This document shows, one piece after another, positions 3,251 through 26,860 of a DNA stretch of 64,000 nucleotides. The notes beneath the pieces are model-generated. The model was not told the DNA's origin, did not search any database, and saw nothing but the letters and a program-made list of their open reading frames with translations. Position numbers and translations under genes: made by a program. Source of the stretch: Nitzschia sp. DOCU1 (lineage: Eukaryota > Bacillariophyta > Bacillariophyceae > Bacillariales > Bacillariaceae); assembly GCA_951394045.1 (NCBI GenBank), contig OX595991.1, positions 620,001 through 684,000 on the forward strand. The letters run 5' to 3'. The first letter of the stretch is position 1; every line of letters begins with the position of its first letter.

Positions 3251-6130
3251 TTAAATCTTGGGAGCAAAGGACATGACACGATCTTTCTTCTCGGTGCTGC
3301 TCTTTCGACGACGGGCAATAGCCGCCTGTGCTCGTGCCAAACGAGCCACGGGAACACGGAATGGTGAGCACGAGACGTAGTCGAGACCGACTTGGTCAAA
3401 GAATTTGATGGAATCTGGGTCTCCTCCATGTTCACCGCAGACCGATAGTGAAAGATTTGGGTTGGCAGTGCGTCCTTTAGCAGCAGAAAGACGCACCAGC
3501 CAGCCGACACCTTCTTCGTCGATGGTCTTGAAGGGCTCGACTTCCAAAATTCCCTTTTCGAGATATTGAGGGAGGAATACGCCGGCATCATCCCGAGAAA
3601 TTCCCATTGTCATTTGAGTCAAGTCGTTGGTTCCGTACGAGAAGAATTGACAGAGCCTCTTGCCGTCCGCTGGATCCACCAGACCTGCGATCTTATCCGA
3701 GACAAGTGCAGCCCGTGGAACTTCAATCATTGTGCCGATCTCGTAGACGACTTCGGCGTTGCGTTCCTTCTTGACACGATCAGCCGTCTTTTTGATGATC
3801 AGCGCTTGCTGTTCAAACTCAGCGACAGTGGCCACCAACGGAACCATAATGCGGGGGCAAGGTTTAGCATTGGCGTCTTTCTCGATTCTATCAGCAGCCG
3901 CATGAACAATTGCCTCGACTTGCATCTCGGTCAGACCTTGGCGAACAATTCCCAGACGACAACCACGAAGACCAAGCATTGGATTTTCTTCATGCAACTC
4001 CTCGATGGCAGCAACCAGCTCATCGGGTTCGGTGAAACCGAGTTGAGCTGCTAGCTCCTTGTTGACTTGCTCCGGCTTTGGCAAGAATTCATGCAGAGGA
4101 GGATCCAAAAGACGAACCGTCACTGGTTTGCCATCCATAGCTTCGAAAATCTCGCGGAAGTCGTCGCGTTGAAATTCTTGGACCTTGTCAAGTCCTTCGC
4201 CTCTCAAAATCCAACGACGGACAACTGGAAGTCGTGCGGGGTTGAAAAACATGTGTTCCGTGCGGACAAGTCCAATTCCCATGGCTCCAAGTTCGGCAGC
4301 CTTGGCAGCGTCGGGTCCAGAGTCAGCGTTGGTCAACACTTTGAGAGTATCGGGGATCTCGTCACACCAACTCAGAACTTCGCCAAATGACCCCTTGATG
4401 GCATTTCGGCTAGTAGGGATCTCAGCCCCAATAACTTCACCGGTGCTTCCGTTAATGGAAATGACGTCGTTCTTCTTGAAAACCTTGCCCGTACTCTTGA
4501 TGGTCATGGTCTCGGCATTTTCGTCGATGATAAGTTCGTCGCAACCGCAGACACATGGTTTGCCCCATCCACGCGCAACAACGGCGGCGTCTGGAAATGA
4601 AAAGACGGCTGTTAGCAAACATTCGCGACTGTGACGCCCCAATGCGTATATGATTAGTACTTACGAGATGTGATTCCTCCTCTCGCCGTGAGAATACCCT
4701 GCGATGCCCACATGCCGCCGACATCTTCGGGGGAAGTGACTTCACGAACCAGAATAACTTGTTCCGTGCTGCGCGCTTCTGCTTCGCTGGTCTTGAAGAC
4801 AAGCTTTCCGACGGCGGCGCCTGGACCTCCAGCAAGACCGATCGCAACGACATTGTCTTTATAAAGTGGCGATTCCAAGGCTTCTTTGGAAAATGACGGG
4901 TGAAGAACTTGCTTGACATGATCGGCCTCGATGCGCAAAAGTGCATCTTCCTTTGAGCAGAGACCCTCCTTGACCATATCCGCGGCAATATTAAAGGCGG
5001 CAGGACCAGTGCGCTTTCCACTGCGGCATTGCAACATCCAGAGCTTGCCACGTTCCACCGTGAATTCGACATCTTGCATGTCTCCAAAGTGCTTCTCAAG
5101 CAAATTAATGTTCTTGATAAATTGCGCGTACGCTTCAGGGAGAACTTCTTGCATCTTGGCAATTGGTTGTGGTGTGCGGATTCCAGCAACAACATCCTCG
5201 CCTTGTGCGTTAATCAAATATTCTCCCATCATGACATTTTTTCCAGTACCAGGGTCGCGAGAAAATGCTACACCCGTACCGCTAGTGTCACCAAGGTTAC
5301 CAAAGACCATGGTCTGGATATTGCAGGCTGTGCCAATAAGTCCAGTGATATTCTTGATTTCACGGTACTTGATGGCACGTTCCGAATTCCAGGATCCAAA
5401 GACAGCCTTGATGCAGCATCGAAGTTGCTCGTAGGGATCAAGTGGGAAGGTCTCGTTGTGCTCCTGGTAGACCTGCTTGTATAGACCGACGAGTTCCTTA
5501 AGCTGGTCGGCGGTAAAGTCGGTGTCGACTTTGACACCGTATTTGGTCTTTAGACTGTCCATTTTAGCCTCGAAGGCTTCATGGGGGATACCTAGAACGA
5601 CATCTCCAAGCATGTCCAAGAGACGACGGTAGGCGTCGTACGCAAATCGAGGGCTGTCGGTGGCCCTTGCCAATGCTTCGACGGTAGTGTCATTGAGACC
5701 CTATAATCAGTGATAAAATAATATGATTGAGAACGCGGATCATTTTCTGCCCGAAATAGCCAAGTTTACTTACAATGTTAAGGACTGTGTCCATCATGCC
5801 CGGCATCGAGATTGCGGCTCCACTTCGACACGAAAATAGTAGAGGGTTCTCTTCTGAGCCAAATTTCTTTCCAGTGTCCTTCTCAACACGTTCAATGGCG
5901 GCCCTGACCATGTCCCACATTTCTTTTGGCAAGTCATCAGCCTTTTGGTACACCTGGCAAAGCTTGGTTACTAGGGTAAATCCAGGAGGCACGTCAACCC
6001 CAATGCGGCCCATTTCCTGAAGCCCAAGGCCTTTACCGCCAAGAATGGCTTTGTCGGGAGCATCGACGGGGGGCGCCGATCCACCAAAGTTGACAAGGGC
6101 CTCTGCCAAATTCAAGTCAAGTTGCGTCAT
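3251..6130 (-). CDS. PPDK: Pyruvate, phosphate dikinase
   Basis: Interconverts pyruvate + ATP + Pi and PEP + AMP + PPi. Exons on the minus strand are 6130-5774, 5700-4665 and 4590-3251, giving 910 aa, the usual family length. Introns (73 and 74 bp) have GTAAGT donors. The N-terminal nucleotide-binding domain begins within the first 30 residues (AILGGKGLGLQEM). The phosphohistidine motif reads GGITSHAAVVARG, with His near residue 465 encoded across intron 2 (C|AC). The C-terminal PEP-utilising barrel ends with the active-site motif SVCGEHGGDP. The ATG at 6130 follows a short A-rich leader; there is no signal peptide, so this form looks cytosolic unless an upstream exon was missed. In diatoms PPDK is thought to act in gluconeogenesis or pH/ATP balance rather than classical C4 fixation. 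The next gene is FBPase in divergent orientation, with about 1.25 kb between. Confidence 0.95.
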
Positions 6131-10594: not shown

Positions 10595-13500
10595 CTAGTT
10601 TCCTCGGCGCAACTTGATCAAGTCTTCCTTTGAGATACTGTAAGCGGCTTTTTCAATCTTGGCGGGGACTCCATCGCCGATTATCGCAAAGGCAGTGCGA
10701 GCCCGTTCCGACAGTTGTTGGTCCCCGGGGAGCATTTGAGAGCATTCGCCACATTCGTTGATGATTTCCGCAAAGAAGAGTCCACGTTCGGAGGGAGTGT
10801 GCAAGTGCGGGCAGAGGTTGCCAAAGAGGCGGACGGAATTGGCAAAGTTGAGGGGACCGAGATTGAAGGGATGCTCGACCTGGCCACCGATAGAGGGCTG
10901 GCCCAAGGAATGCTTGCCAGTCAGAACGACCTTGACTTGTTTAGTCTCGTAAAGTAGCGTGCTCAAAATCATGGGCAATTCTTGAGCGTCATCTGATTTC
11001 TCAAGGAGCTCAACACGGTCGAGAACAATCAGGGCCCTTTCGTTCTTCAAACTTCTCGAAATGATATCCAACATACCCTCAACTTCATTGTCGTCTTCCG
11101 ACTTCGAGCACTTGCCAGCTTCCTTGAGCTTATCCAGAAGTTGCCGAAGAAGAGACCTGCAGGTAACGTTGCGTCCACCGTGCTTTGGTTTGATGAAGTA
11201 GATCCGCTGAATTTCCGTGACTGTACTGGCGCGTTCATTGATGTAGTGGCAAACAGCGCAAACCAAGGAAGAGCGGCCAATGCCTGGCTCTCCGAGAACA
11301 TTGACCAATCGCTTCTTCATCTTGAATAAAGCGGTCAACAGATAGTACATATCTACTTCCCGCCCAATGAAAAACTGGGGTGCGGTTGGTGAAGGGTCCT
11401 CCTGCATCATGTTTCGTGTGCCCAGTTCGGAACTTTTGGCTCCAAGAACCATCGCACTGCGCATTCGGATGAGACTGCCTCGTCGCCGGGTAGATTTGTG
11501 TGATTCGAGGCCTTGGTTTCCATGTTGCTTCGGCCATTCTCGAACAGGCTTCGCATTGAAGACAGGTACATTATGATTCCCGTCCTTGGGTAACAAAACA
11601 AACTTCTCCATTTCCTTCTCGGGGTCCTTGAGATTTGGAGTAGCTCTAACCGCCTTGCACCCTTGGTCGAACGATTCTTTTACCGTGTTACCGACAGCGA
11701 GAGCAAGGTAAAAGGAACGTGTGAAGGCCAATGCGGCAGTGTCTTTCAACTCCTGCTCCTGCTGACAGCAAACAACATGTGGGACACCAGCCGATGCGAA
11801 AGTCTCACCAGCTAGGCCAGAGTGACAAGCAGAGACAAACACAAACTTGAAGGGTGCAGAGCCATCGCGAACAATAAGCTCCTTGATATCCTGAACGTTC
11901 AACCAATTGGGGCCACCCATTCCGTCTTCAAATGGAAGGAAGTGAGGGTGACCATGACCAGAGTAATGAAGGCAACTGCACCGCTTCGTCAGTGTTGCGA
12001 GCAGCCGTGAGTGGTGCGCAGTATCGAAAGAAAGCTCAATGTCGCGGGATGCTTCCTTCATGCACTGCCATAGTAGCTCTCGCTCCATGTCGAAATCCAA
12101 TTTCGCAAAAGGGTGCAGCTTGTTCATCTCATCAGCAAAGACCAGCGGGGCGGAGAAGAGTACTGTGATCATGTTATCACCTTCGTCGCCTCCTGCTAGG
12201 GAATCTTCCATTGAAGCAGGTCGCATTCTGGAGAGGGCGCCGAAAGGACGATCGAGGGTGTCCGTTTCGTCTTCTTGGATGAGCCCGAGGCCCCTTTGGC
12301 TTTCGCCCTGGAGTGAAAACATGTGCATTTCCTCCGTTTCTCCCTTCTCGCGTTGCTTGATCAGTCGTAGAATTGCATTCTTTCGAGATTTTCTCAAGAA
12401 CCTTCCAAGTTCGTTTCGTTGCTTGGTATTCAGCGGCGGAGAATTGTTTTCGAAAAGTAAAAAGGAAAGACTGCTTTCAGCGTCGCCTCCGTTTATATGC
12501 TCCAAAATATTGTCGATCAATGACGAGCTAAATTTGTTGCTTGATAAATCGAGATGGCACAGAGACGTATTCTTCAGGAGCGACGATGCCAAGAGCTGGT
12601 AAGAATCGCCCTCCAGACCATTGTTGGAAAGATCTAGGAATCGGAGGCACAGAGCATTGTGCTTCAGCAAAGCGAAGATTTCGAGCCCGGCTTGCCCTAG
12701 GAAGAGATCGTTGTCTGCCAGGATAAGAGTGTGCAATGATGATTTCCAACCTTTCCTCACCATTTTTGCGCCAACCTTCTGGTTGTATCGGTAGTACTCA
12801 GTGTAAAACCTGAGAACATGAACCATGTTAGTTCCACGGCCAATCCTGTTCCCAGAAAGGTCGAGTTGTTCGAGGTTGCACCCGGAATCTTTGTCGTGAA
12901 CAAGCTCAATTACTTTTGCTGCCAATTCGTCGCCCAGTTTATTTCCACTCAAGTCCAGGATTGTCAAGGAAGATAAGGGCATTGAGTTGGGACCGCGTTT
13001 TGCCGGACCCGATTTTCCTAGAATGCCGAAAAAGGAACTCCATGACTCACGAGAGATTTGTGGAGAATTGCGAATTCCAACGCAAGTGAATTTTCCTTGG
13101 CTCTTCCCCACTGATGGCGAACCCACTTCTTTTTCTTCCGCTGAGCTTCCTTCGTCGCCACCTGAAGACAACTTTCCCATCGTATCGATGATGGCAACGA
13201 GAGCTCTTAAGTCTCTGTCCTGGAGAACGCTATCGAACGTTAGGAAAGACACCCACGGTGGAAGGGAACCAGCAAGATTGGCCAGTAAGCCACCACCATC
13301 TTCCGCTTCGCTCTCTGTCGTGTCAGCATCGCGTAAGAGAAGCCAGTCCGAATTTCGTGCAAAAGACAGCGCGGTGATCATGGGGCAAAGATACAAGGTT
13401 TGAACCAGAGATTCCACAAACTCCCCAGCGAAAGTACTGTTTGTGAAGCCAAGACTCCAGTGTACTTCGTCTGTGTCAGAGAGCCCAGCTTGCTTCTCGC

Positions 13501-16500
13501 ACAACCGAGCAAGCAGCTGCCCTTCACGTCTGAACGAAAAATATCTTCGTTGAGGCATCATCAGCGCACGGAAGTTAAAGCTTGCTTGCGTACGAATATC
13601 GTTAAAAGGCACAATAGCGTTTCTCAGAACTCTTGAAGGGAAACAACAATCGAGAAATTTCTCAATCCTGTCTGGCATAACTCCCACAGGGCAGCTGTCT
13701 GCATCACCAAAGCCTGCTGATTCCAATGCGCTGTAGTGCGATAAGACCCAATCCTTTTCGACACTGATGTCATTCAACGGGTACACATGAGACTTCAATA
13801 GGCTTGCCTCGTCCATAAACGATGCCCGATTGGATTGATTCAATCGAAAACTTGGGTCCGAACGGACTGAATTTTTTTGTAACGACAAATCGCCGTACAC
13901 GCTGCGATATTGCTCAAGTACAGCCTCTCTGTTCTCGCGAGACTCCCGGTCGCCAGTAAAGTTTTCGAAGAGACCTTGCATCACTGGGTTCTCCTCCGAG
14001 GCTTCACTTCGATCGTCGCTCTGACTCGTTGACATATTGGACTGTGTCGAAATCTGTCTCCTCAGGTTTAAAGTAATTTCACCGTCGATGTCCCCATACG
14101 GCAGTTGCCACATATCGATTACCTTGGTTCGAAGTTCCGCCCTTGCCATAGCTTGGAGCAACAAGGCACGTTGCAGGCAAAACCAATCAACCAGAACCAT
14201 CGGGTTGTTTCCAGCCACCTGAACAGTAATTTCATCTTCTGTGAAACCAAGCGAGAGAAGTACCTGACTTGCAGCAGTTGAAAGGTCGTTCTTATCGTCG
14301 CTCAGAGATTTGAGAGCGAGAAGCCTAGGGAGTGATTTGTCCACGATACGGATCTTCAACGGTTCGGAACGTGCAAGAGCTCCGAGTCCCTTGAGAGCGT
14401 CAAAATTCAGTTCAACAAGGCCTTCGGAATCCTCATCATTCTCGGTTTCCTCGAGCCGTACCAATATGCCATGAAGAGCATCGTAGATCGCGCTCGCCCA
14501 GCGTCCACAACCCTCGTTTGCGGCGGCTTCAGTGAGAAGTAATGGCGAAAGATTGGCCAAGAGGCGACATGTTTCGTCAAGCAAATCCATTCGATCCGCC
14601 GAAAATAAGTGAGCATTGTCGGAGAGCGGAGTAGGGCTGTACGGCAACGATGATATCCACATAATACAATCAAGACCACCGCTTTTCACAACGTCCACGC
14701 ATGCTTTTATTAGCATTTCCTTCGGAACCATGGGCTGAGCACCCGAGGGTCTTCGTTGGGTTTGCGAAAGTTCTTTCTGGGGCTCGAGGATGTTTGCCAG
14801 ACCACGAAGGGCTTCATGAACGTCCTTGACTGAAATCAAGAGAGAGCTTTCGGGATCGGTGAAGGCAGGGTCGGAGCTGTCAGGATCCATGAGTGGTCTG
14901 ATTTCTGCGCTGTCTTCTTGCAGAGTTTTTCCCAGTGCTTCTCCTGCACCTACGCTGCAAAGCTGCAACCTCGTCTGCCGCTTTTCGTCCGTATCTTCAC
15001 TGAGTACTCTCAATGCTTCCACCGACACAGAACGGAGTTTCCCGGAATGATCGAGCGCAATTTGGACAAACGAACCATGTGCCCATCCCTCGATGATTTC
15101 ACTGAGAAGCATCGAACAAGTGTGAGTTGAGGCATGGCCACAAATAGAGCTCTACGTTGCGAAACTTACGTAATGACCGTTTCCTGCTGGTCGGGAGAAG
15201 CCGCATCTATCGCAACATCATTCATTGACAAGGCTGTTGCACGAACCATGGCACCAGCCGCCAACTGAAGCAAAGCACTTGCTGCGTAACGAACCATATC
15301 TTCAGACGCAGGTGCGTTGTGTTCGTAGAGCAACGCCACAAGATAACTGACACACCGCGCTTCAACGACAGCTGCTCTAGTATGAGGAGCAACACACAAA
15401 GCCGATATCATCTGTGCGACTGCGACACGAACATCATGTCCCACAGACTCGGTTAACAACTTTACAATCTCGCTGACAGCACCTTCATTCACCACCTGCG
15501 AATGGATCCAGCCAGCCATGTACCTGTCCTTTATCGAGATCAGATAGCGAAGGGCAGAAGCAGCAGGTCGAATCTTTTCTACTTGCTTCGATCGAATCCA
15601 TTCTACCAGTGTAGTCAGAAGCCCTTCACGGACAGCAATCGGTCTGGCAGCGTCTGCCTCGCACACTTGTTCCACAATGTTGTAGCCAACGTCCAACGGA
15701 TCGCCTGACGGCGAGTCCGAATTTTTTGCCATATGAGTGATCAAGGTTACTGCTAATTCAGTAAGTTCCCGGATCTCTATGGACTCCTTCCCTTGATCAA
15801 ATATAGAGCCGCCAGCTCTTCCTCGCACACGTCCTATCCGGAAAGACGCACTCGGTCGAAGTGCTGGTTGCCTTTGCTTTGGTTTGTCCTTTGTCGATTC
15901 TAGAAACAGCAGAGGCTGAATCGCATTAATCCACAAAACGTTTACGCCCATAGAAGCAGCTTTCAACATTTCTTTCCGAGAAATAGTGAAATCCGCGGCA
16001 TCCACTTCGTAGGCGACGGCAAGAAATCGGAGACATTCTATGATTTTCAGGCCAACCGAAGACGACGTTTGTGACGATACAACAAATGATGGGAGAATAT
16101 ATGCAACCGCCATGCTCGCAACCACCTGAAGTTCATGCGTCGCCCCTTTGGTTCGGAAAAGCGTCAGGAAAGAGTGCATACCACCTGAAGAGCGAATCTC
16201 GTTTCTTAGGGTCTCATTTTCCCGCGCAAATTTCATCAGTGCCATCGCAGCGGCAGTTCTTTTCTCGTTGGGTGCCCGAAGCATACAAATGAGACTGAAT
16301 ACGTCTTCATTCTCCACAAGTAGTTCAATAGTGGGGCCTTCTACTGACTTCTTTTTCTTCTTTTGTTGTACGACCTTTTCTCTCTTGAGTGCTTCATTTC
16401 CGGCGTCGATGGCTGAACAGATTCCATCGTTAACAGCAAATAGTTCTTCTAGGTCTTCGATGGCGTCAGCTTCCTCCAATGCGTTACTCAGTTTCCGCTG

Positions 16501-18282
16501 CAACTTTTCTTGGTCAGCCTTGCATTTTTCTAGCAAATCTCGAAGGAACGGGCCGTCAATCTCACTCTGTTTGGCTGCCGCGAGGAGCTCTTTTGCATGC
16601 TCCTTTGCTCTAGGCACGTCATCCCCGGAAGCTAACGCGACAGATGGCACCCTGGAATCCAGACTTGTGATAGAAGGGGGGGCTTCCTGACTGTATTCCC
16701 TCGTGTGCTTCGTAATTAAAACACCATTCCCTGTGACTGCACTTCGCGGTGGTGGCAAGCTCATGGGCATCCTGGCGGCGGCTGGCACAGATGGCGTATC
16801 AGGGCCTGAGCTGGAAGGACTATGCGGTGACACAGCTGGGGCGTCGTGTGAACTTCCCGAGAGTCCTCCTTCTCCCCGTCGTTTGGCTCGTTCCTGCCGC
16901 CTTAAATCTCTGCGGCTACTACTAGCACCGTCATGGCTCGTACTTCGTATCATGCCAGGATTTCCAGGGCGAGAATCTGAGGGGTAGGCGGGAGAAGAAA
17001 CTACTCTCTGGGGAGCTCTCCAGGCAGGTCCCAGGGGATCCGACGGACGGTTGGAATCCGAACGGGATGTATGGGCCGCCGACGCTGGATTCAACGTAAA
17101 ATGTTCGTTAATAGTTGCTGCAAGATCGGCCGGGTCGTCTTCCACTAAGCTTCTCCGTTGACTGCTTTTCACTCCATAGTAAGAATGTCGTCCGGATTCA
17201 GGAGAATGGGCACTATGTGATGGATACAAGCCGGCTTGAGAGGGCATGCTAGGGGTCATCGATCGGGTCATCATTTGGTTCCCATTTGAAAAGGGATCGT
17301 GGTCTACTGAAGCAACATTACGCATGGCGTATGGTGAGTTCGACTGCCCCCCAGCAGGAACAGAACGGTGCCTAGGCGGCGAATTTGTAGGGGGCAAGTT
17401 CCCCATGGACCTGCTGTATCCATGCTTGGATTGATGCTGCCCGTGAGCTGAAACGATGCTCATTCGATCACTTCCTCCCCACACAAATGGAGTCGAGTTG
17501 TCCGTCCCGAAATTTCCTTGGAGCAAATCGCCGTTGCCATTACGGAAGGAAACGACCGGATACCAGGGCAAATCCACGCTGTTCCTGAAGGAAATGTTTT
17601 GACTGAGTGGCACCATTATATTTCCGTTCCGAGTAAAGAACACTCGATGACTTCCCCCCAGCTCGACACCGCACCCGATGGTCTCGCCACTACGAAAGTA
17701 GACTTTCGCTTGACTAGCATCGAGGCGCCGCCCGTGGGCATGCAGCCCGTCGGCACCCCAGCCGATCGAGTGCGCTATTTCACCAGGCCAGGCTCCATGG
17801 GTGTCCGTTTCGCACATTAATCCAATAGAAAAATCCCCCGTAGACGACGGGTGGCTGCTAACGAAGGTAACTTCAAAATAAAACACCTGCGAAATGTCGT
17901 GCCCATTGCTTTGTCCTCTTCCTCCCCTGCCAGAGGAATGCTGGAACAAACTTTTTGAAATCGGTCGGTTTGGATAGACTGTAATCTTTGCGATTGAGTG
18001 CATGTTAATGTAGAGAGAATTTGAGTGCACCAAGGACATATTGTCGATACGCCATGCAGTGGGGAGGGGTCCATCACCTGCACCGCCGTTCTGCGGTCTG
18101 CCATCCGGAGCCGTGGAAAAATGTCTCGCAGGCTCCATTCGAGACATAGCGTAATTTTTGGGCTGTAGCGAGTGATGCTGTCCTCCAATCGGGGGTATCA
18201 AGTTCCGGGCGGGATCCAAATGATCATCTTGGTCTTGTTCAGCAGTGGCTCCGCGCCTGTTTTGCCTTAATAACCGTTTCAT
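10595..18282 (-). CDS. SPRY/ARM/LRR/CHAT-protease/STAND-NTPase multidomain protein
   Basis: Two long frames join across a 68-bp GT..AG intron: exon 1 is 18282-15170 and exon 2 is 15101-10595, giving about 2539 aa. The GTAAGT donor sits exactly where exon 1 would otherwise stop, and splicing keeps frame (ETVIT|EIIEGW). Domains in order: SPRY/B30.2 (about 77-270, VFYFEVTFVSS, FSIGLMCET); Ser/Pro-rich linker (270-570); GAT-like helices (about 575-660, FLRDLLEKCKADQEKLQRKL); ARM/HEAT helices (about 660-1150); RI-type LRRs (about 1745-1940, LTILDLSGNKLGD); CHAT caspase-fold protease (about 2010-2220) with catalytic motifs LHYSGHG (His about 2087) and VFVSACHSG (Cys about 2131); a P-loop NTPase (about 2300-2480) with GEPGIGRSS and LIVLDRVELLE. 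CHAT proteins are cysteine proteases related to caspases and separase. The combination suggests a ligand-sensing, protease-effector receptor; this is inference. The alternative is two adjacent genes, since an ATG also exists at 15112. Confidence 0.82.
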
Positions 18283-19418: not shown

Positions 19419-21050
19419 TTACCGCCTTTCTTCCATGGGTGCTTCTTTCTCCCAAAGATCGTGAAGAAACTGGAAAAGACGCGTTGATACTTTGACATCG
19501 TACTTTTCCGGATTGTTATATCGCAAGATGGAAGGTGGGAGAGACTCCAATTGAGACTTGACAAAATCGCGGGATGTGGAAAGTTCGGGTTTGTATGTCG
19601 CTTTGCCCTTTTCAAAGACTGCTGAGTGCAATTCTACGACCTTGCTAGGCACAACGCAACATCGGTTTTGGGCGTTGAAGGGGTCACGGCACACGATACG
19701 GCGGCCAGCGGTGGGTATCTCTTCCTCGTTGGCCAGTAACATAATATCTACCATGGGTCGATTGTCTTGACCAAAAAGTCTAAAGACTCGCTTCCTTCCA
19801 GGAATGGTGACCTTGGGCAAATCTTGGGAAATCTTGATTCGTGGGTGTCCTTTCCACTCGACGAGCTTGTAGACACATCCAAGTGCAGGCTGAGCTTGAC
19901 AGGTAACTAGATTCGTCCCAATGCCAAATGTTGTGATTCCATGAGGTTGCTCGGTGAGTTGGTGTAGTACTTCTTCATTAATATCATTGGAAGCAACAAT
20001 CGTCAAGCCGTCAAATGCTGCACGACCTGTCGAATCTTTGATGCTCTGAAAATAATTGGCACATTCCAGACTGAGCTGGGCAAGGTTACCCGAATCTAAT
20101 CGTATCCCTTTAGCTTGATAGCCAAAGTCATCCAAAGCCATGGCCACAGCCGAGAAATTCGGTAGCCCCGAGCTGATGGTTGAATATGTATCCACTAGAC
20201 AAAGTGTTGCGTGGGGAAAGGCGCAAGCATAGGCCACGAATGATGCCAGTTCACCATCATTGGTCGGGGTGTTGTCCCCTTTCATAGCCGATAGCGCTTC
20301 TCGATGTTTGAGGACACCAGGTAAAAATTGCTGCGATTCCTGGACGTGTTTGTTGAATAGTGTCAAGCTCTCCACTTCATCCAGCGAGGTGAACGACTGA
20401 CAGTAGGAATGAGCGTGAGTCCCCGCAATCGGAACGGAAAAAACTTTTCCGGCCTGAACATTGGACGTGGCGACAAACCCTCCAAGATAAGAATACTTGC
20501 TAGCCGAACAAGCTCCATCGGGACCCTGGGCACGTCTCAAGCCGAATTCAATACAAGGTGCCGGATGCGCTCGAAGGACCATCCGGGCGGCATTTGTGGC
20601 AACCAGAGAAGGGTAGTTGATAAGATTGAGAAGTGACGTTTCGAGTAGTTGCGCTAGTCCAAGTGGACCTTCCACGACGATTAGCGGAACGCGAGGAAAC
20701 GCCACGGTGCCTTCTTGCATGGCCCTAACTGTAAGGTTAGAAGTGTCTAGCTGTCGCAGATAATCGAAAAAGCCATCTTCACAGTGCGACAAAGCCGGCG
20801 TCGTCTTTAGATATTCAATATCATCTTCTGTGAAAGAGAAGGATTGAATGTACTTTAAACTCTCGTCAAGACCACAGAACACCGTGAATTCCCCACGAAA
20901 AGGATTTTTGCGGAAGAAGAGCTCGAACACGCTGTCTTCCTCGTGTTTACCAGTTTTCCATTGTGCGTAAGTCATTGTCAGCTGGTACAGATCCACCAGA
21001 AGAGGTCCGACCAGATTGTTTGTCGGTCTATCGACATTTTCGATAGACAT
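19419..21050 (-). CDS. NAPRT: Nicotinate phosphoribosyltransferase
   Basis: First enzyme of the Preiss-Handler NAD salvage route: nicotinate + PRPP (+ ATP) to nicotinate mononucleotide. Single exon from ATG 21050, 543 aa, normal for eukaryotic NAPRT. Family landmarks: LLVDLYQLTMTYAQW near the N-terminus, FFRKNPFRGEF, EGTVAFPRVPL, CIEFGLRRAQGPDG (about residues 170-184), GTHAHSYCQSF with the active-site His, and GIRLDSGNLAQLS. No targeting signal is apparent, so a cytosolic location is likely. It is followed upstream on the same strand by a PARG-like gene (21606-22493), and both products act in NAD/ADP-ribose metabolism. Confidence 0.95.
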   Translation of the reverse strand: MSIENVDRPTNNLVGPLLVDLYQLTMTYAQWKTGKHEEDSVFELFFRKNPFRGEFTVFCGLDESLKYIQSFSFTEDDIEYLKTTPALSHCEDGFFDYLRQLDTSNLTVRAMQEGTVAFPRVPLIVVEGPLGLAQLLETSLLNLINYPSLVATNAARMVLRAHPAPCIEFGLRRAQGPDGACSASKYSYLGGFVATSNVQAGKVFSVPIAGTHAHSYCQSFTSLDEVESLTLFNKHVQESQQFLPGVLKHREALSAMKGDNTPTNDGELASFVAYACAFPHATLCLVDTYSTISSGLPNFSAVAMALDDFGYQAKGIRLDSGNLAQLSLECANYFQSIKDSTGRAAFDGLTIVASNDINEEVLHQLTEQPHGITTFGIGTNLVTCQAQPALGCVYKLVEWKGHPRIKISQDLPKVTIPGRKRVFRLFGQDNRPMVDIMLLANEEEIPTAGRRIVCRDPFNAQNRCCVVPSKVVELHSAVFEKGKATYKPELSTSRDFVKSQLESLPPSILRYNNPEKYDVKVSTRLFQFLHDLWEKEAPMEERR

Positions 21051-21605
21051 GGCTTCTCTTGGAAACTATTACTATCGTTTTGTCGGGTTTGAAATGACGG
21101 AGCAAGATTTTATGGCGGCAAAATCATATCTTCGAGCTGCTCCCGGCCGGCCGTCGAACGTTTTGGCGGACGACGGACAAACAATGCGCAACCTCATCTT
21201 TTGTCGCCGGCGGTGCCGACAATGACCATTACTTGACTTGCTCTAGTAGAGCGGACCGTTGTAAAAGCTCCCACTAGTAAATATCTGTGAGTCCCTATAG
21301 TTTAGAGTCGTTCCATTGGAGCCCTTTCTAGAGCATGACACCGCGCTATAGAAGCCGATGTTAATTTCTTTTCCTGGACCCAATAAGATATTGCTCGCGG
21401 GGGAGACTAGAAACACCAAATGTGACCCGCTTCAACGCTTGCCTCGTCTCCTTGCCCAGTGTATGACATCTGATAGTCTGAGCGGGGCTCTCTAGAGCTG
21501 CATGGAATCGGTCAGAACATGAGCTTGGATTCCATCGAGATGCTTGGCGTCACGGCAAATGGGGTATCGAGCTATATGCACAGCCCCATAGAATTCGTAG
21601 TCATA
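21051..21605. other. Intergenic region between NAPRT and the PARG-like gene
   Basis: About 555 bases; the NAPRT promoter should lie here together with the 3' UTR of the PARG-like gene. No coding or RNA gene was recognised. Confidence 0.5.
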
Positions 21606-22493
21606 CTACATAGGCTCCACAGAAAATGTTTTTGCAAAGTATTTGTACACAGTCGACGATTCTTCGTGTGGCACGGCAAAAACAACCTCCGTGAAGCGTC
21701 CTTCCATGTCGGGATGAAGTAGGGCCGCATTGAAGGCCTTTGCTACTTCCCACGGAGAGTTCTTGTTAATTCCGCAGCCCCAGGGACCTAGGATCAAAAT
21801 CTCCGCGCCATGATGTACCGCCACCTGCAGGACTCGAAGGACTCTTGTTTGCATGATCAAAATTGCGGATTCTTCGTCGGCTTTGCTGATCGTTTTGCTC
21901 ATCATGCCCGTGTTGAAGTTGACACAACAGGACGTTATCACATTGCAAGTAAAGGGCTGTAGAGTCAATTCCATATCACGGTCTCGAAAAACCGGAACGT
22001 ATGGTGAATAGATCATGTTGGAACTGTAGGTGAGAACTCCTGCCTTTGCCTTGCCCGGTTTTGACAATTCCTTGTGTAACTCGTAGAATGGCTTGGCTTG
22101 AGGAGTTGAGAGACAAGCAATCAAACCGGTGGAAGCCGCTAGATTCTCTTCTTGCTCCCAAGAACCTCGATTCAGCCCACCACCGGGATTCTTTGCACTC
22201 GCAAAATTCAATACCAAGACGTCCTCGATGCCTTCGGTTTGGAGACGATGCAAACACTGCATGGTCGTTTCCGCGGTCATGTAAATTTTTGTTTTTTGGG
22301 GGGTCTCGATAGGCGGAATAGTCAAAGCTTCATCAGCTCGGTGAAATACCGTCCCCTGGCACGCTGCATCCAAAACCTCCGATAGGTTGATGAGCGTGTT
22401 TTGGTCGGACGACGGATTCTTGGCGACATAGGATTTCTGCCGTAGTATCTCGTTCGTTTCGTCAGCAATCTCGATGCGCTTGGTCCTATCCAT
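21606..22493 (-). CDS. Bacterial-type poly(ADP-ribose) glycohydrolase (TIGR02452/DUF2263-like)
   Basis: Predicted macrodomain-fold enzyme that hydrolyses ADP-ribose polymers. Single exon from ATG 22493, 295 aa. The catalytic signature of the microbial PARG class is present: NFASAKNPGGGLNRGSW directly followed by EQEE, i.e. GGG then 6 residues then QEE, with the catalytic Glu pair near residues 117-118. Downstream, LILGPWGCGINKN (about residue 245) matches the conserved GxxGCGxF-like ligand loop. The N-terminal helical region (RIEIADETNEIL) is also typical of the family (T.......). No organelle presequence is seen. It lies in tandem with NAPRT. Bacterial-type PARGs occur in bacteria, fungi and some protists, so either ancient transfer or retention is possible. 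Confidence 0.85.
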   Translation of the reverse strand: MDRTKRIEIADETNEILRQKSYVAKNPSSDQNTLINLSEVLDAACQGTVFHRADEALTIPPIETPQKTKIYMTAETTMQCLHRLQTEGIEDVLVLNFASAKNPGGGLNRGSWEQEENLAASTGLIACLSTPQAKPFYELHKELSKPGKAKAGVLTYSSNMIYSPYVPVFRDRDMELTLQPFTCNVITSCCVNFNTGMMSKTISKADEESAILIMQTRVLRVLQVAVHHGAEILILGPWGCGINKNSPWEVAKAFNAALLHPDMEGRFTEVVFAVPHEESSTVYKYFAKTFSVEPM

Positions 22494-22936
22494 TGTGCCT
22501 TCTCACTGCGGTTGTCTGCAATAGTTCCTGTTGAATCAAATGTGGTGGTCTCCCTGTTTGGGTAATGCCATTACCAAAAGGTAGATTCGAGACCGCATCG
22601 ATCGTTGCCAACTGAAAAAAGATCTTTCGCCGACCAAAATGACCCCGGCACGAAAAAAAGGACTGCGGTTCGATTCATTCGATTCTTTCATTTTTCAATT
22701 TTTTTCGTGCCACTCCGCGATGACGTCATCGTCGGCTGCCTCGTGTATTCAATGTATTGCCAACGTGTTCGATGGTCGAATGCGATGCGATAAAACCTAC
22801 GATCATTTCTGAGGTTGTCCACCATGACATTGTCAGTTTGCTCGCCGATCTCCATCACGACCACACACTAACTAATCACCAAATCTGGCTTTGAAACGAG
22901 AGTGGTTGATTTGCTAGCTCGTCGAGACCGTCGAGA
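22494..22936. other. Divergent promoter region (PARG-like / small plastid protein)
   Basis: 443 bases between two divergent genes; it contains a palindromic CRE site (separate entry) and T-rich tracts. No gene was recognised. Confidence 0.5.
22718..22731. promoter_or_regulatory. Palindromic CRE-like site (bZIP motif)
   Basis: CGATGACGTCATCG is a perfect 14-bp palindrome around the CRE core TGACGTCA (22721-22728). It lies about 225 bp upstream of the PARG-like ATG and 206 bp upstream of the ATG at 22937. TGACGT elements are known CO2/cAMP-responsive sites in diatom promoters; function here is inferred. Confidence 0.5.
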
Positions 22937-23571: not shown

Positions 23572-26339
23572 CTAGTTGTATCCCTTTTTCTTCCCACTCT
23601 TTTTATTCCCAAAGAAGCTACTAAGGACTGATCCACGCTTTTTCCCGGGTTCTCCATCCTTTCCTTGGCGACCCAATTTAGCTGCCTTTGCGTCCTCTAT
23701 AGCTTGTACTTCGGCCTCAAGATCGGGCTCTTCATATATATAAACGGGGTGCCCGTGAGTCGATTCCAAGAATTCCTTCTCAGACGCTGTCAAGATATTC
23801 TGGACTTTTCGGAGCTCTTCCGAAACCTTCTCAAACGACCATCGCGTTTTAGGGTTGTCGTCCCAGTTTACGTTGAGCATATCCGCAACGGCTGTGGGCG
23901 TGTTGAGTGGAATGGGCGGCCTCTGCTTTTCAGTGGCAACAAGTTTGGCAGCGTCGATAGCACTAACTTCCAGAAACGGTTCCTCGCGTGTTAAGAATTG
24001 CCATAACATGATCGCAAACGAGTACATATCAGCAGCGGTCGAGTAGGCTTCGTGTCGAATCACTTCCGGTGCCTAAGAGAACAACAAAGTCGATTCGTTA
24101 GATCAGCATGGCTTAGCACTCACAGACCTCCTCACAAGCAGTCGAATTGATAGTTCATAGAACGACGCTACTCACCATCCAACGGTAGGTACCAGTTTCT
24201 CCGGTCAAATTATGGTTCACTCGATGCCCCAGCGAGCCGTCACTCGTTTCGCCGGCCATGGTATCATCGAGTTTAGTGGCCACGCCAAAGTCCGTAACCT
24301 TAACAGTGAAGTGCCCGCTTGCAACATTCCCATCACACAAGACATTGGCGGGCTTCAAGTCTCGATGAATTACGTTTCGATTATGCAAATACGCCATGGC
24401 GTTGCTGATACCCAAAGCCGCGGTAAAGAAGAAATTCTTTGGGGTCGGATACTTTAAAACCGTGGACAGATCGCCGGCATTACAGTATTCCAAAACTAGA
24501 CAGTACGTCAACGGAGTCTCGTGATACACGCTTCCTAGTAGACGAATGATGTTGGGATGATGAAGACGTTGCAACGCGTCCACCTCAGTACGCCAACCCT
24601 CCAAGCCAAATCGAGAGGTTGAAGCCACCTATGCAAACGTTGGTCAGTGGATAAAGTTGCAAGATATATGCAGACGGCAATTCGAATTCGAGATGAGACG
24701 CGTCGAAGACACTAAAAACATACCTTGACTGCAACCTCCTGGCCCGACCAATCCGCCATGTAGGTTGTAGCCGCAGCACCTATGCAAACGTTGGTAAGTG
24801 GATAAAGTTGCAAGATATATACAGACGGCAATTCGAATTTGAGATGAAACGCGTCGAAGACACTAAAAACATACCTACTCCAATACGTTTGGTAAATTTG
24901 AGCTCGTAAATGGAAATTTCCCATTCCTTCGCAGCAGGATTCATTGGTCGTTCGCTTTTGGTGAGAGCACGTGATATATTTTCTTTCAGGCTCACCCCCG
25001 GCGAAACTTGTTGGCCTTGCTCGTCGCTTCGGTGCTCGCCGGCATCATTTTCTGCGTCACTTTCATCGGTTTCCAGTACTTCCAAAAGACGTTGTTTGAT
25101 TTGTTCGGGTGTCATGGCTTCGATCTTTGCAGTCAAATCACTAACATTGGTAGTAGTGAAGATTTGCTGCAGGGTCAAGCCGATCAACACTTTTTCTTCG
25201 GGGATTTGTTGTTGCAGCAATGAACTCATGGGCGATAATGGGGGGTGCGCTCCTGACATGGACGGGTTCGGTGTCGATGCCATCATGTTCAAGGCTCCTG
25301 AAGAGAGAACTTTGCTCATTGTGATTGGCAAGCAGCACTCCAGCTCCTCTACTAGCAATAGCTCCACCGAATGAAGTTTATCCACGTAAAGTGTGATCAT
25401 ATCCCAAATGTTTTCCGCGTCGTATTCCGCATGCTGAAGAGAATCAAAGTCTGATAGAATGATCAGCTGCAACTCCTGCAATTGCGGGGAGAGACTGGAA
25501 AGCTCCAATATCAGATTTCGGTGACTGTCCTCTGGAAGATCCTCTAGTTGATTAATCAGGGAACGCTGATTCTCGACTTCCAGGATCAAGTCGCTCATCA
25601 GAAAGCGTAATGATGGATCATCTGTCCCACGAAAAGCTAAAAGTGAACTTAGAATGGCTCGTTCAATTCCGGCTGATTCTTTTAGTTGAACGAACAGGTG
25701 CAGCAGGGTAAGAATCTGTTGCGTCTTGGGCTTTCCTTCCTCGAACGAGACCCTGACACTTGCTGACAAGTAGGAAGGTTTTGGTGGAGGGTTGCTTTCA
25801 TTTTCTTCACTTTCTTCCATGGAATATAATGTGGCCAATTTCTTTCCGTTGGACGGCAGTGGAATAATTGTCTCGACTGTCGTTTCTGGTGAAAGCATCA
25901 ACTTGGACGCCAGCTTCTCATTAATGTCCGTGCTCAACCCTCTACGGTGCCGATTTCGTATGGTCGACTTCTTGGGCTTTTGATCTGTCCCCGCCGAAAT
26001 TTCTCTCAAGATGTACTCGTGAACGACGTAGGAAATCAGAGTATTAAAACAGACAAAAATGCGATGCAGTGCCATCTCATCGTCTGATTCTTGTGGATTT
26101 CGGTGCGACGAAATCATTCTTCGGATTTTGGACAGTTGTGAAGCGACTGGCACATCATTTCGACGTATAAGAGTGGTCGAAGTATCGCTTGCCGACCTTG
26201 CCTCGATCATGGCTTGCTCAAAAGCTATATTGTCGGCGTAATAAGCGCAAGAGGATCCTCGCTCTTTTTGAAGACAGTGAACCAAACGAATTGCATTTCG
26301 AAGAAGTGTGGCATCTACACTTGAATCTGAGGAATTCAT
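23572..26339 (-). CDS. NIT-domain TKL-type protein kinase
   Basis: Exons on the minus strand: 26339-24875, 24779-24724, 24628-24176 and 24072-23572, giving 824 aa. The ATG at 26339 is used because the longer frame begins with a non-ATG codon. N-terminal half: NIT (nitrate/nitrite-sensing) domain features, with AIRLVHCLQKERGSSCAYY near residue 20, DTSTTLIRRND, and VQLKESAGIERAILSSLL around residue 265, which match the paired 'LQ.ERG' and 'KE..G.ERA' signatures. C-terminal half: Ser/Thr kinase (about 477-760) with glycine loop IGVGAAATTY, AVK lysine (507), VIHRDLKPANV (Asp about 597), TDFGVA (Asp about 620) and GTYRWMAPEVI, the last typical of the TKL group. A basic Lys/Gly-rich tail ends the protein. 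NIT domains are best known from bacterial nitrate/nitrite receptors; nitrogen sensing here is inferred. Confidence 0.85.
24629..24723 (-). repeat. Duplicated intron copy 2 (introner-like)
   Basis: 95-bp intron 2 of the NIT-kinase gene. It begins GTATGTTTTTAGTGTC and ends GTTTGCATAG. It matches intron 1 (24780-24874) at 91 of 95 positions with no gaps. Phase 0, located directly after the AVK lysine codon. Confidence 0.92.
24780..24874 (-). repeat. Duplicated intron copy 1 (introner-like)
   Basis: 95-bp intron 1 of the NIT-kinase gene, with the same first 16 and last 10 bases as intron 2 and four substitutions in total. Phase 1, within the kinase glycine loop. The exon between the two copies is only 56 bp and shows no similarity to flanking exons, so the duplication covers the intron and not the exon. 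Confidence 0.92.
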
Positions 26340-26860
26340 TGCTGCTTTCTTCAACACAAACAAGACATTAAAAAGGGGAAAGGCTGGATTGGCAATGGAG
26401 TGAACACTGTGGACGAAGACGTTGGACTGAAATCGCAAAGTGGAACAAGCAACATGTGTCGCAAAGCTTGGATGAGAGGAAGCTTGTTGACATCATTGGT
26501 GTAAAAAGTGTGCCGTTGTGTTGTAGCGTCGAGAGGTGCGCGGATGCCTCCGCTCTCTACGGAAAGTCATCATGTCTATGGAACAACACGTGAAAAACAG
26601 CAACGAGCATAAATCTCGCACTTGAAAGCTATTTAACGATCTACCCGGTCCGCAGTGCACTGATGTCAACGATCCCGTACTACCGGCATTTGATGTAGGG
26701 AGCAGATCGCAATTGCATATCGCGAAAGCCAGCTACTACGCAATAGTACATTGGACATAGTCATCTCACCCATAGAGTCATCTCACCCATTTTAGCTACG
26801 TAGTATTAATCTTCCCTCTTTTACTTTTGCTGTTCATTTTCTTTCTTTTCTTCGTTGTTA
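26340..26860. other. Intergenic region, NIT-kinase promoter side
   Basis: About 520 bases containing the presumed NIT-kinase 5' region and the citramalate synthase 3' UTR. A direct repeat of GTCATCTCACCCAT occurs at about 26760-26790. No gene was recognised. Confidence 0.5.

What the first reader, a model, noticed from the sequence alone, without database searches (positions are those of the whole stretch)
10595..18282. NLR-like giant protein joining SPRY, ARM, LRR, CHAT protease and STAND-like NTPase
The sequence shows one spliced frame of about 2539 aa with a SPRY domain, GAT-like helices, ARM repeats, RI-type LRRs, a CHAT domain with intact catalytic motifs (SGHG and SACHSG) and a P-loop ATPase. 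CHAT proteases are known as effectors in prokaryotic defence (TPR-CHAT with type III-E CRISPR, gasdermin-activating proteases), while SPRY, LRR and STAND modules are parts of animal and plant immune receptors. I know of no described eukaryotic protein with this combination. It could be a diatom innate-immune or cell-death receptor that releases a protease on activation.
Basis: partly seen in the sequence, partly recalled or inferred. Interest (0 to 1): 0.92.

Follow-up and report, generated by a model that had tools for sequence, protein, structure and literature searches.

The report
Diatom-wide receptor-like CHAT protease fusion
This diatom gene encodes a giant protein that joins sensor-type repeats, a caspase-like protease and a cell-death-type nucleotide-binding module; relatives occur in centric and pennate diatoms with the protease active site unchanged, which suggests a conserved protease switch rather than a fast-changing immune receptor.

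The parts
15170..18282 (-). exon 1 (W residues 1-1037 and two bases of 1038)
   Evidence: frame, splice; the first codons MKRLLR resemble MKRILR of P0019
15102..15169 (-). 68-base GT..AG intron
   Evidence: same place indicated by relatives
10595..15101 (-). exon 2 (third base of W residue 1038 to 2539 and stop)
17449..17895 (-). SPRY domain, W 130-278 (Pfam stretch W 134-260); nearest solved relatives SS15 effector, SPRYD3, RanBP9/10
   Evidence: 32.1 bits; (E 5.7e-15 to 2.6e-14)
17134..17151 (-). short motif SLVEDD in the low-conservation N-terminal stretch (SLEDD type in relatives)
   Evidence: 17 of 37 N-termini against a mean of 0.40 in shuffles
16375..16617 (-). GAT-like helical stretch, W 556-636 (weak)
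   Evidence: 18.1 bits, below 31; profile A3 to TOM1 GAT E 0.0036
14135..16362 (-). armadillo-type region, W 641-1360 (Pfam-supported part W 874-1015); interrupted by the intron
   Evidence: conservation; outer borders are inference
12335..13669 (-). RI-type leucine-rich repeats, W 1516-1960
   Evidence: model; Foldseek ribonuclease inhibitor and NLRP3; borders are approximate
11540..12181 (-). CHAT protease domain, W 2012-2225
11954..11956 (-). presumed catalytic His2087 (SGHG)
   Evidence: 161 of 161 listed relatives
11825..11827 (-). presumed catalytic Cys2130 (SACHSG)
   Evidence: 161 of 161 listed relatives
10598..11404 (-). C-terminal NB-ARC/CED-4-like NTPase, W 2271-2539
11273..11275 (-). 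Arg2314 in place of the Walker A lysine
   Evidence: Arg in 156, Lys in 3 of 161 listed relatives
11009..11032 (-). Walker B LIVLDRVE, W 2395-2402
   Evidence: Asp in 146, Glu in 14 of 161
10664..10678 (-). GxP motif GDGVP, W 2513-2517, 22 residues before the end

Best explanation
A protease hub conserved over the diatoms. Shown by sequence and models: one reading frame with SPRY, ARM and LRR modules, then a CHAT protease fold with an invariant His-Cys pair, then an NLR/CED-4-like NTPase with an arginine for the Walker A lysine and no room for a winged helix. Inferred: the N-terminal modules bind a ligand or partner and hold the protease idle; binding or assembly moves the CHAT-NTPase unit, most likely on the disordered linker W 1961-2011 behind the LRRs, and aligns the dyad, so that it cleaves itself or a cellular substrate. 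Because the ATP switch looks lost, the NTPase-like end most likely serves as an assembly or docking face, perhaps for Lys-bearing CHAT-NTPase paralogs of the same genome, some of them pseudoproteases. The outcome (cell death, stress response or defence) is not known; a conserved core pathway is more likely than recognition of variable pathogens.
Against: No activity, nucleotide binding or oligomer was measured. Arg in a P-loop may still bind nucleotide; Walker B Asp and GxP Pro are kept in 146 and 160 of 161 and 3 have Lys again. MLA10 CC-NB fragments with K207R still killed cells. Only three of the eight paralogs read (L010, L013, L017) have the full GK[ST]; the others read GKKT, GKVT, GKVA or GKNA, so few may be ATP-competent. 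Nothing ties W to its paralogs except presence in one genome. pTM 0.82 of CHAT-NTPase may mean that these two are packed together rather than loose. Many of the 161 are metagenome clusters, not independent species. The substrate is unknown.
Confidence: 0.42

Rival explanations
1. Housekeeping regulatory protease tied to ubiquitin or membrane traffic: SPRY of the RanBP9 kind, GAT-like helices, UIM-like motifs in relatives and ARM repeats recognise ubiquitinated or trafficking cargo, and the CHAT domain trims it. No link to death or immunity.
For: SPRY profile nearest SS15, SPRYD3, RanBP9/10 and Vid30; GAT profile to TOM1 E 0.0036; UIM-like motif in 14 of 37 N-termini against a mean of 0.50 in shuffles; conservation and one clade member in this genome.
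Against: W itself has no UIM-like motif; Pfam calls no UIM in the three relatives scanned at E<=1; GAT is below cut-off, and the same profile search lists a designed protein at E 0.018. RI-type LRR next to an NLR-type NTPase is unusual for such proteins (inference).
Confidence: 0.27
2. Innate-immune or cell-death receptor that senses pathogens and releases protease activity.
For: NLR-like fold, RI/NLRP3-like LRR, CHAT effector; fungal NLRs with CHAT, some beside gasdermins, are described (PMC10197012 and PMC12881547, passages).
Against: Conservation and one clade member in the genome; no gasdermin match; Lys lost and no room for a winged helix; the eight neighbouring frames with a Pfam match are metabolic or sensory, not immune-like.
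Confidence: 0.17
3. A one-chain apoptosome with a working nucleotide switch: Arg replaces Lys functionally and the module oligomerises as CED-4 does.
For: Walker B Asp in 146, GxP Pro in 160, GRE Arg in 161 of 161; 3 of 161 have Lys.
Against: Arg in 156 of 161; 22 residues after GxP; sensor-1 position mixed, Arg or Lys in 98 of 161; plant K207R loss of function.
Confidence: 0.12
4. Artefact: two neighbouring genes, or a chance join.
For: No RNA-seq of this organism was available.
Against: 38 of 161 listed relatives run through the intron place, including P0122, P0078 and proteins of annotated genomes; in-phase GT..AG intron.
Confidence: 0.02

Closest known systems
Fungal NLRs with a CHAT protease, some beside gasdermin genes (PMC10197012, PMC12881547, passages read)
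   Same: caspase-related CHAT protease in one chain with an NLR-type NTPase and superstructure repeats
   Different: there the protease is the N-terminal module and the repeats are WD40, TPR or ANK (C-terminal position recalled); here SPRY, ARM and LRR precede CHAT, the NTPase is last, the P-loop Lys is Arg, no gasdermin match
SAVED-CHAT (PDB 8tl0) and TPR-CHAT of type III CRISPR
   Different: bacterial, gated by cyclic oligoadenylate in SAVED effectors (PMC11417357, passages) or by guide RNA (recalled); no NTPase module (recalled)
CED-4 / Apaf-1 / plant NLR NTPases
   Different: no room for a winged helix, Arg for Lys, protease in the same chain rather than recruited
Own-genome CHAT-NTPase paralogs (C5 x3, C6, C9 x2, C10, C11 x2, C15)
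   Same: CHAT followed by the same NTPase; LRR in four
   Different: Lys in eight of eight read; 110-870 residues follow GxP in seven open frames; no SPRY or ARM in the frames scanned; 24-43% identity; three of nine read lack the catalytic Cys

Membership tests
CHAT proteases (PF12770) | profile match above curated cut-off | tested here: met
   26.4 bits against 24
CHAT proteases (PF12770) | catalytic His-Cys dyad | tested here: met
   W and 161 of 161 listed relatives
CHAT proteases (PF12770) | caspase/separase-like fold | tested here: met
CHAT proteases (PF12770) | proteolytic activity | not testable with these tools
   no assay
NLR / AP-ATPase (STAND) | NBD fold with helical domain | tested here: met
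NLR / AP-ATPase (STAND) | Walker A lysine | tested here: not met
   Arg2314; Arg in 156, Lys in 3 of 161
NLR / AP-ATPase (STAND) | winged-helix domain after GxP | tested here: not met
   only 22 residues follow GxP
NLR / AP-ATPase (STAND) | effector - NBD - C-terminal repeats | tested here: not met
   CHAT precedes the NBD, but repeats are N-terminal and the NBD ends the chain
NLR / AP-ATPase (STAND) | nucleotide-driven oligomerisation | not testable with these tools
   no assay
Fungal CHAT-NLR with gasdermin partner | gasdermin gene nearby | tested here: inconclusive
   none among ten neighbour frames scanned; no PF04598 match in the genome, but that model may miss non-animal gasdermins
SPRY proteins (PF00622) | profile match above cut-off | tested here: met
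   32.1 bits against 26.3
GAT domain (PF03127) | profile match above cut-off | tested here: not met
   18.1 against 31 bits; weak profile support from TOM1

The most novel reading that the evidence does not exclude
Diatoms share an ancient one-chain death or defence machine: a conserved executioner hub (this gene) with an arginine-fixed, switch-less NLR-type module, driven by hetero-assembly with Lys-bearing, diverged LRR-CHAT-NTPase sensors, including pseudoproteases, in the manner of plant sensor/helper NLR pairs.
Probability: 0.15. Interest if true: 0.88.

Novelty: new variant of a known kind. Interest (0 to 1): 0.62.

Why it matters
Programmed death and virus responses of phytoplankton are usually discussed through metacaspases (recalled). 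This gene gives a different, conserved candidate: a caspase-relative joined to an apoptosome-type module in diatoms, with the CHAT domain more conserved than any other part. The natural Arg in the P-loop, in a clade whose examined relatives outside it have Lys, is a ready-made test of whether NLR-type modules can work without an ATP switch.

Tried and rejected
Two-gene artefact: rejected. Variable immune receptor: not favoured. PADLOC and NCBIfam gave no meaningful match: mad8 E 0.034; Hda E 0.00068 at 19.2 bits against a cut-off of 194.8; TIGR02928 E 0.011. Prokaryotic or viral relatives by pattern scan with A1: none confirmed among 3 and 16 pattern matches; this reaches only near relatives, so the origin stays open. 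Gasdermin in the genome: none at E<=1. Search with paralog L011: only 4 proteins, so that paralog line is rare or fast-evolving, or the word filter missed relatives. UIM: regex only; Pfam calls none in P0107, P0094, P0054. SPRY by Pfam alone: 4 of 19 long relatives at E<=0.01; 10 of 30 and 6 of 6 by an own iterated profile; P0021, P0054, P0059, P0060, P0094 and P0107 have N-termini of 587-817 residues in front of ARM without a detected SPRY, so it was lost or lies beyond recognition there. VIA: most rows cover 263-535 only, so no fold is excluded for the CHAT part. Literature, listings only: 'CHAT domain' with 'diatom' gave 1 paper, on Nostoc extracts; searches listed nothing whose title or abstract start describes this gene; one search listed 12 of 550, 15 of 9,799, so this is no proof of absence, and the library is open-access only. 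Kaur et al. (PMC7159879) holds 'diatom' and 'chat' zero times.

Full report
Gene and splice. The finding's two frames join over a 68-base GT..AG intron, in phase, into 2539 aa. Among 161 listed relatives, 38 run through the intron place and 66 start close to it, as expected of gene callers that ignore introns. Transcript support is from relatives only: P0122 (Proboscia alata, MMETSP0174 record) spans SPRY to NTPase, P0078 (Entomoneis paludosa) spans ARM to NTPase, P0064 is named 'expressed unknown protein' of Seminavis robusta.

Domains. Pfam confirms SPRY, Arm, LRR, CHAT and STAND/NACHT above cut-off; GAT and NB-ARC are below theirs. A profile of nine SPRY sequences finds SS15, SPRYD3 and RanBP9/10 in the PDB, then Vid30 and ryanodine receptors. 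A profile of 18 GAT-like stretches finds TOM1 GAT at E 0.0036, next a designed protein at 0.018, which is suggestive only.

Distribution. Search with W 1470-2539 gave 138 proteins among the 7989 candidates scored, the 120 listed at 43-80% identity over 98-100% of the query. A search with the most distant of these, P0120, gave 226 (120 listed), adding Proboscia alata and Thalassiosira exigua (lineage). The relatives whose names show an organism are diatoms: Nitzschia sp., N. inconspicua, Psemu1 (Pseudo-nitzschia multiseries, recalled), Cylindrotheca fusiformis, Seminavis, Entomoneis, Epithemia, a Bacillariaceae MAG, Proboscia, Thalassiosira exigua; most carry no name. A SPRY-like domain is found by an own iterated profile in 10 of 30 long relatives from the first search and 6 of 6 long ones added by the second, among them the two centrics, so it is probably ancestral; Pfam alone finds it in 4 of 19. 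Six relatives with N-termini of 587-817 residues show none, while others may be cut short by gene calling.

Constraint. His2087 and Cys2130 are kept in 161 of 161. By part, mean identity to W is CHAT 0.81, NTPase 0.57, LRR 0.55, ARM 0.50, CHAT-NTPase linker 0.47, GAT-like 0.33, SPRY 0.33, LRR-CHAT linker 0.16; 76 of 214 CHAT columns are invariant (first 120 relatives). SPRY and GAT figures rest on few rows (means 14 and 29).

P-loop. Arg2314 stands for the Walker A lysine: Arg 156, Lys 3, Ser 1, Cys 1 of 161. Lys is seen in all eight paralogs whose P-loop I read, L009, L010, L011, L013, L014 minus, L015, L016, L017 (that of L014 plus lay beyond the stretch read), and in P0162 and P0163, so Arg probably arose on the stem of this clade if the root lies among the paralogs. 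But only L010, L013 and L017 have the full GK[ST]. The same change made in barley MLA10 (K207R) abolished cell death of the full receptor, though CC-NB fragments stayed active (PMC3369952, passages).

Family in the genome. A protein search finds 11 places with the core, a lower bound by the tool's own note: the window gene and ten others at 24-43% identity. Read by alignment, the dyad is intact in six paralogs and the Cys lost in three, all in a C5 cluster of LRR-CHAT-NTPase genes (3.33-3.34 Mb); C9:46010 was not read. Pfam shows LRR in four paralogs and a Macro domain in L013. A 49-row tree puts 37 orthologues on one side of a branch (100/100) and all nine paralogs on the other, with end branches up to 4.45 against a median of 0.21 (the tool warns that long branches make the order among paralogs unsure; L009 and L016 are close to each other). 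The paralog L011 finds only 4 proteins in the database. So one conserved gene stands beside diverged relatives.

Other N-terminal signs. An SLEDD-type motif occurs in 17 of 37 N-termini (shuffles 0.40 on average, at most 3), W included, five times in P0054; a UIM-like motif in 14 of 37 (shuffles 0.50, at most 4), W not included. The rows are related, so these numbers overstate independence.

Surroundings. Of ten neighbouring frames scanned, eight match Pfam: PPDK pieces (two), FBPase, C26 glutamine hydrolase, NAPRTase, PARG, NIT and an HMGL/LeuA-type enzyme; two match nothing. No gasdermin match in the genome.

Judgement. The anatomy is that of a gated protease; constraint falls most on the CHAT domain, and the ATP switch looks degenerate. 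I therefore favour a conserved protease hub assembled through a switch-less NLR-type module, at 0.42, over a ubiquitin/trafficking protease (0.27), a pathogen receptor (0.17) and a working one-chain apoptosome (0.12). It works like a CHAT effector with a receptor; it is a member of the CHAT family, but not of the NLR family by its defining switch and order. Fungal CHAT-NLRs (PMC10197012, PMC12881547, passages) show that the idea of protease and receptor in one chain is known; the order, the lineage and the fixed Arg are what differ.

Noticed in passing
G000:C5:3328346-3342064 (L013, L014): Cluster of three LRR-CHAT-NTPase genes that all lack the catalytic Cys (Phe, Val, Arg in its place), two also the His; one carries a C-terminal Macro domain; the two P-loops read have Lys.
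   Followed up: partly
P0054 N-terminus, residues about 232-395; W 366-386: Motif of the type (F/Y/L)G.(K/R)..SLEDDDP, five copies in P0054, one in many relatives, SLVEDD in W, in otherwise poorly conserved sequence: perhaps a binding or processing motif.
   Followed up: partly
P0107 residues 565-613; P0048 617-627; P0094 487-497: UIM-like motifs in front of the GAT-like helices in 14 of 37 N-termini, three in P0107; absent from W.
   Followed up: partly
window 21606-22502 (-) and 19419-21065 (-): A microbial-type PARG catalytic domain next to a nicotinate phosphoribosyltransferase: NAD-related neighbours.
   Followed up: no
window 24780-26492 (-): Protein with a NIT (nitrate and nitrite sensing) domain, 50.4 bits.
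   Followed up: no
window 3251-5700 (-): PPDK-type enzyme in two overlapping frames (3251-4660, 4654-5700); intron or frame break not examined.
   Followed up: no
G000:C9:46010-46456: Eleventh, short CHAT-NTPase place (557 aa frame), not read.
   Followed up: no
P0163, P0164: Other CHAT proteins: P0163 (taxid in its record name now Pseudictyota dubia) with PF05147 (LanC-type, name recalled); P0164 with PF00069 and ankyrin-type Pfam domains (names recalled).
   Followed up: no
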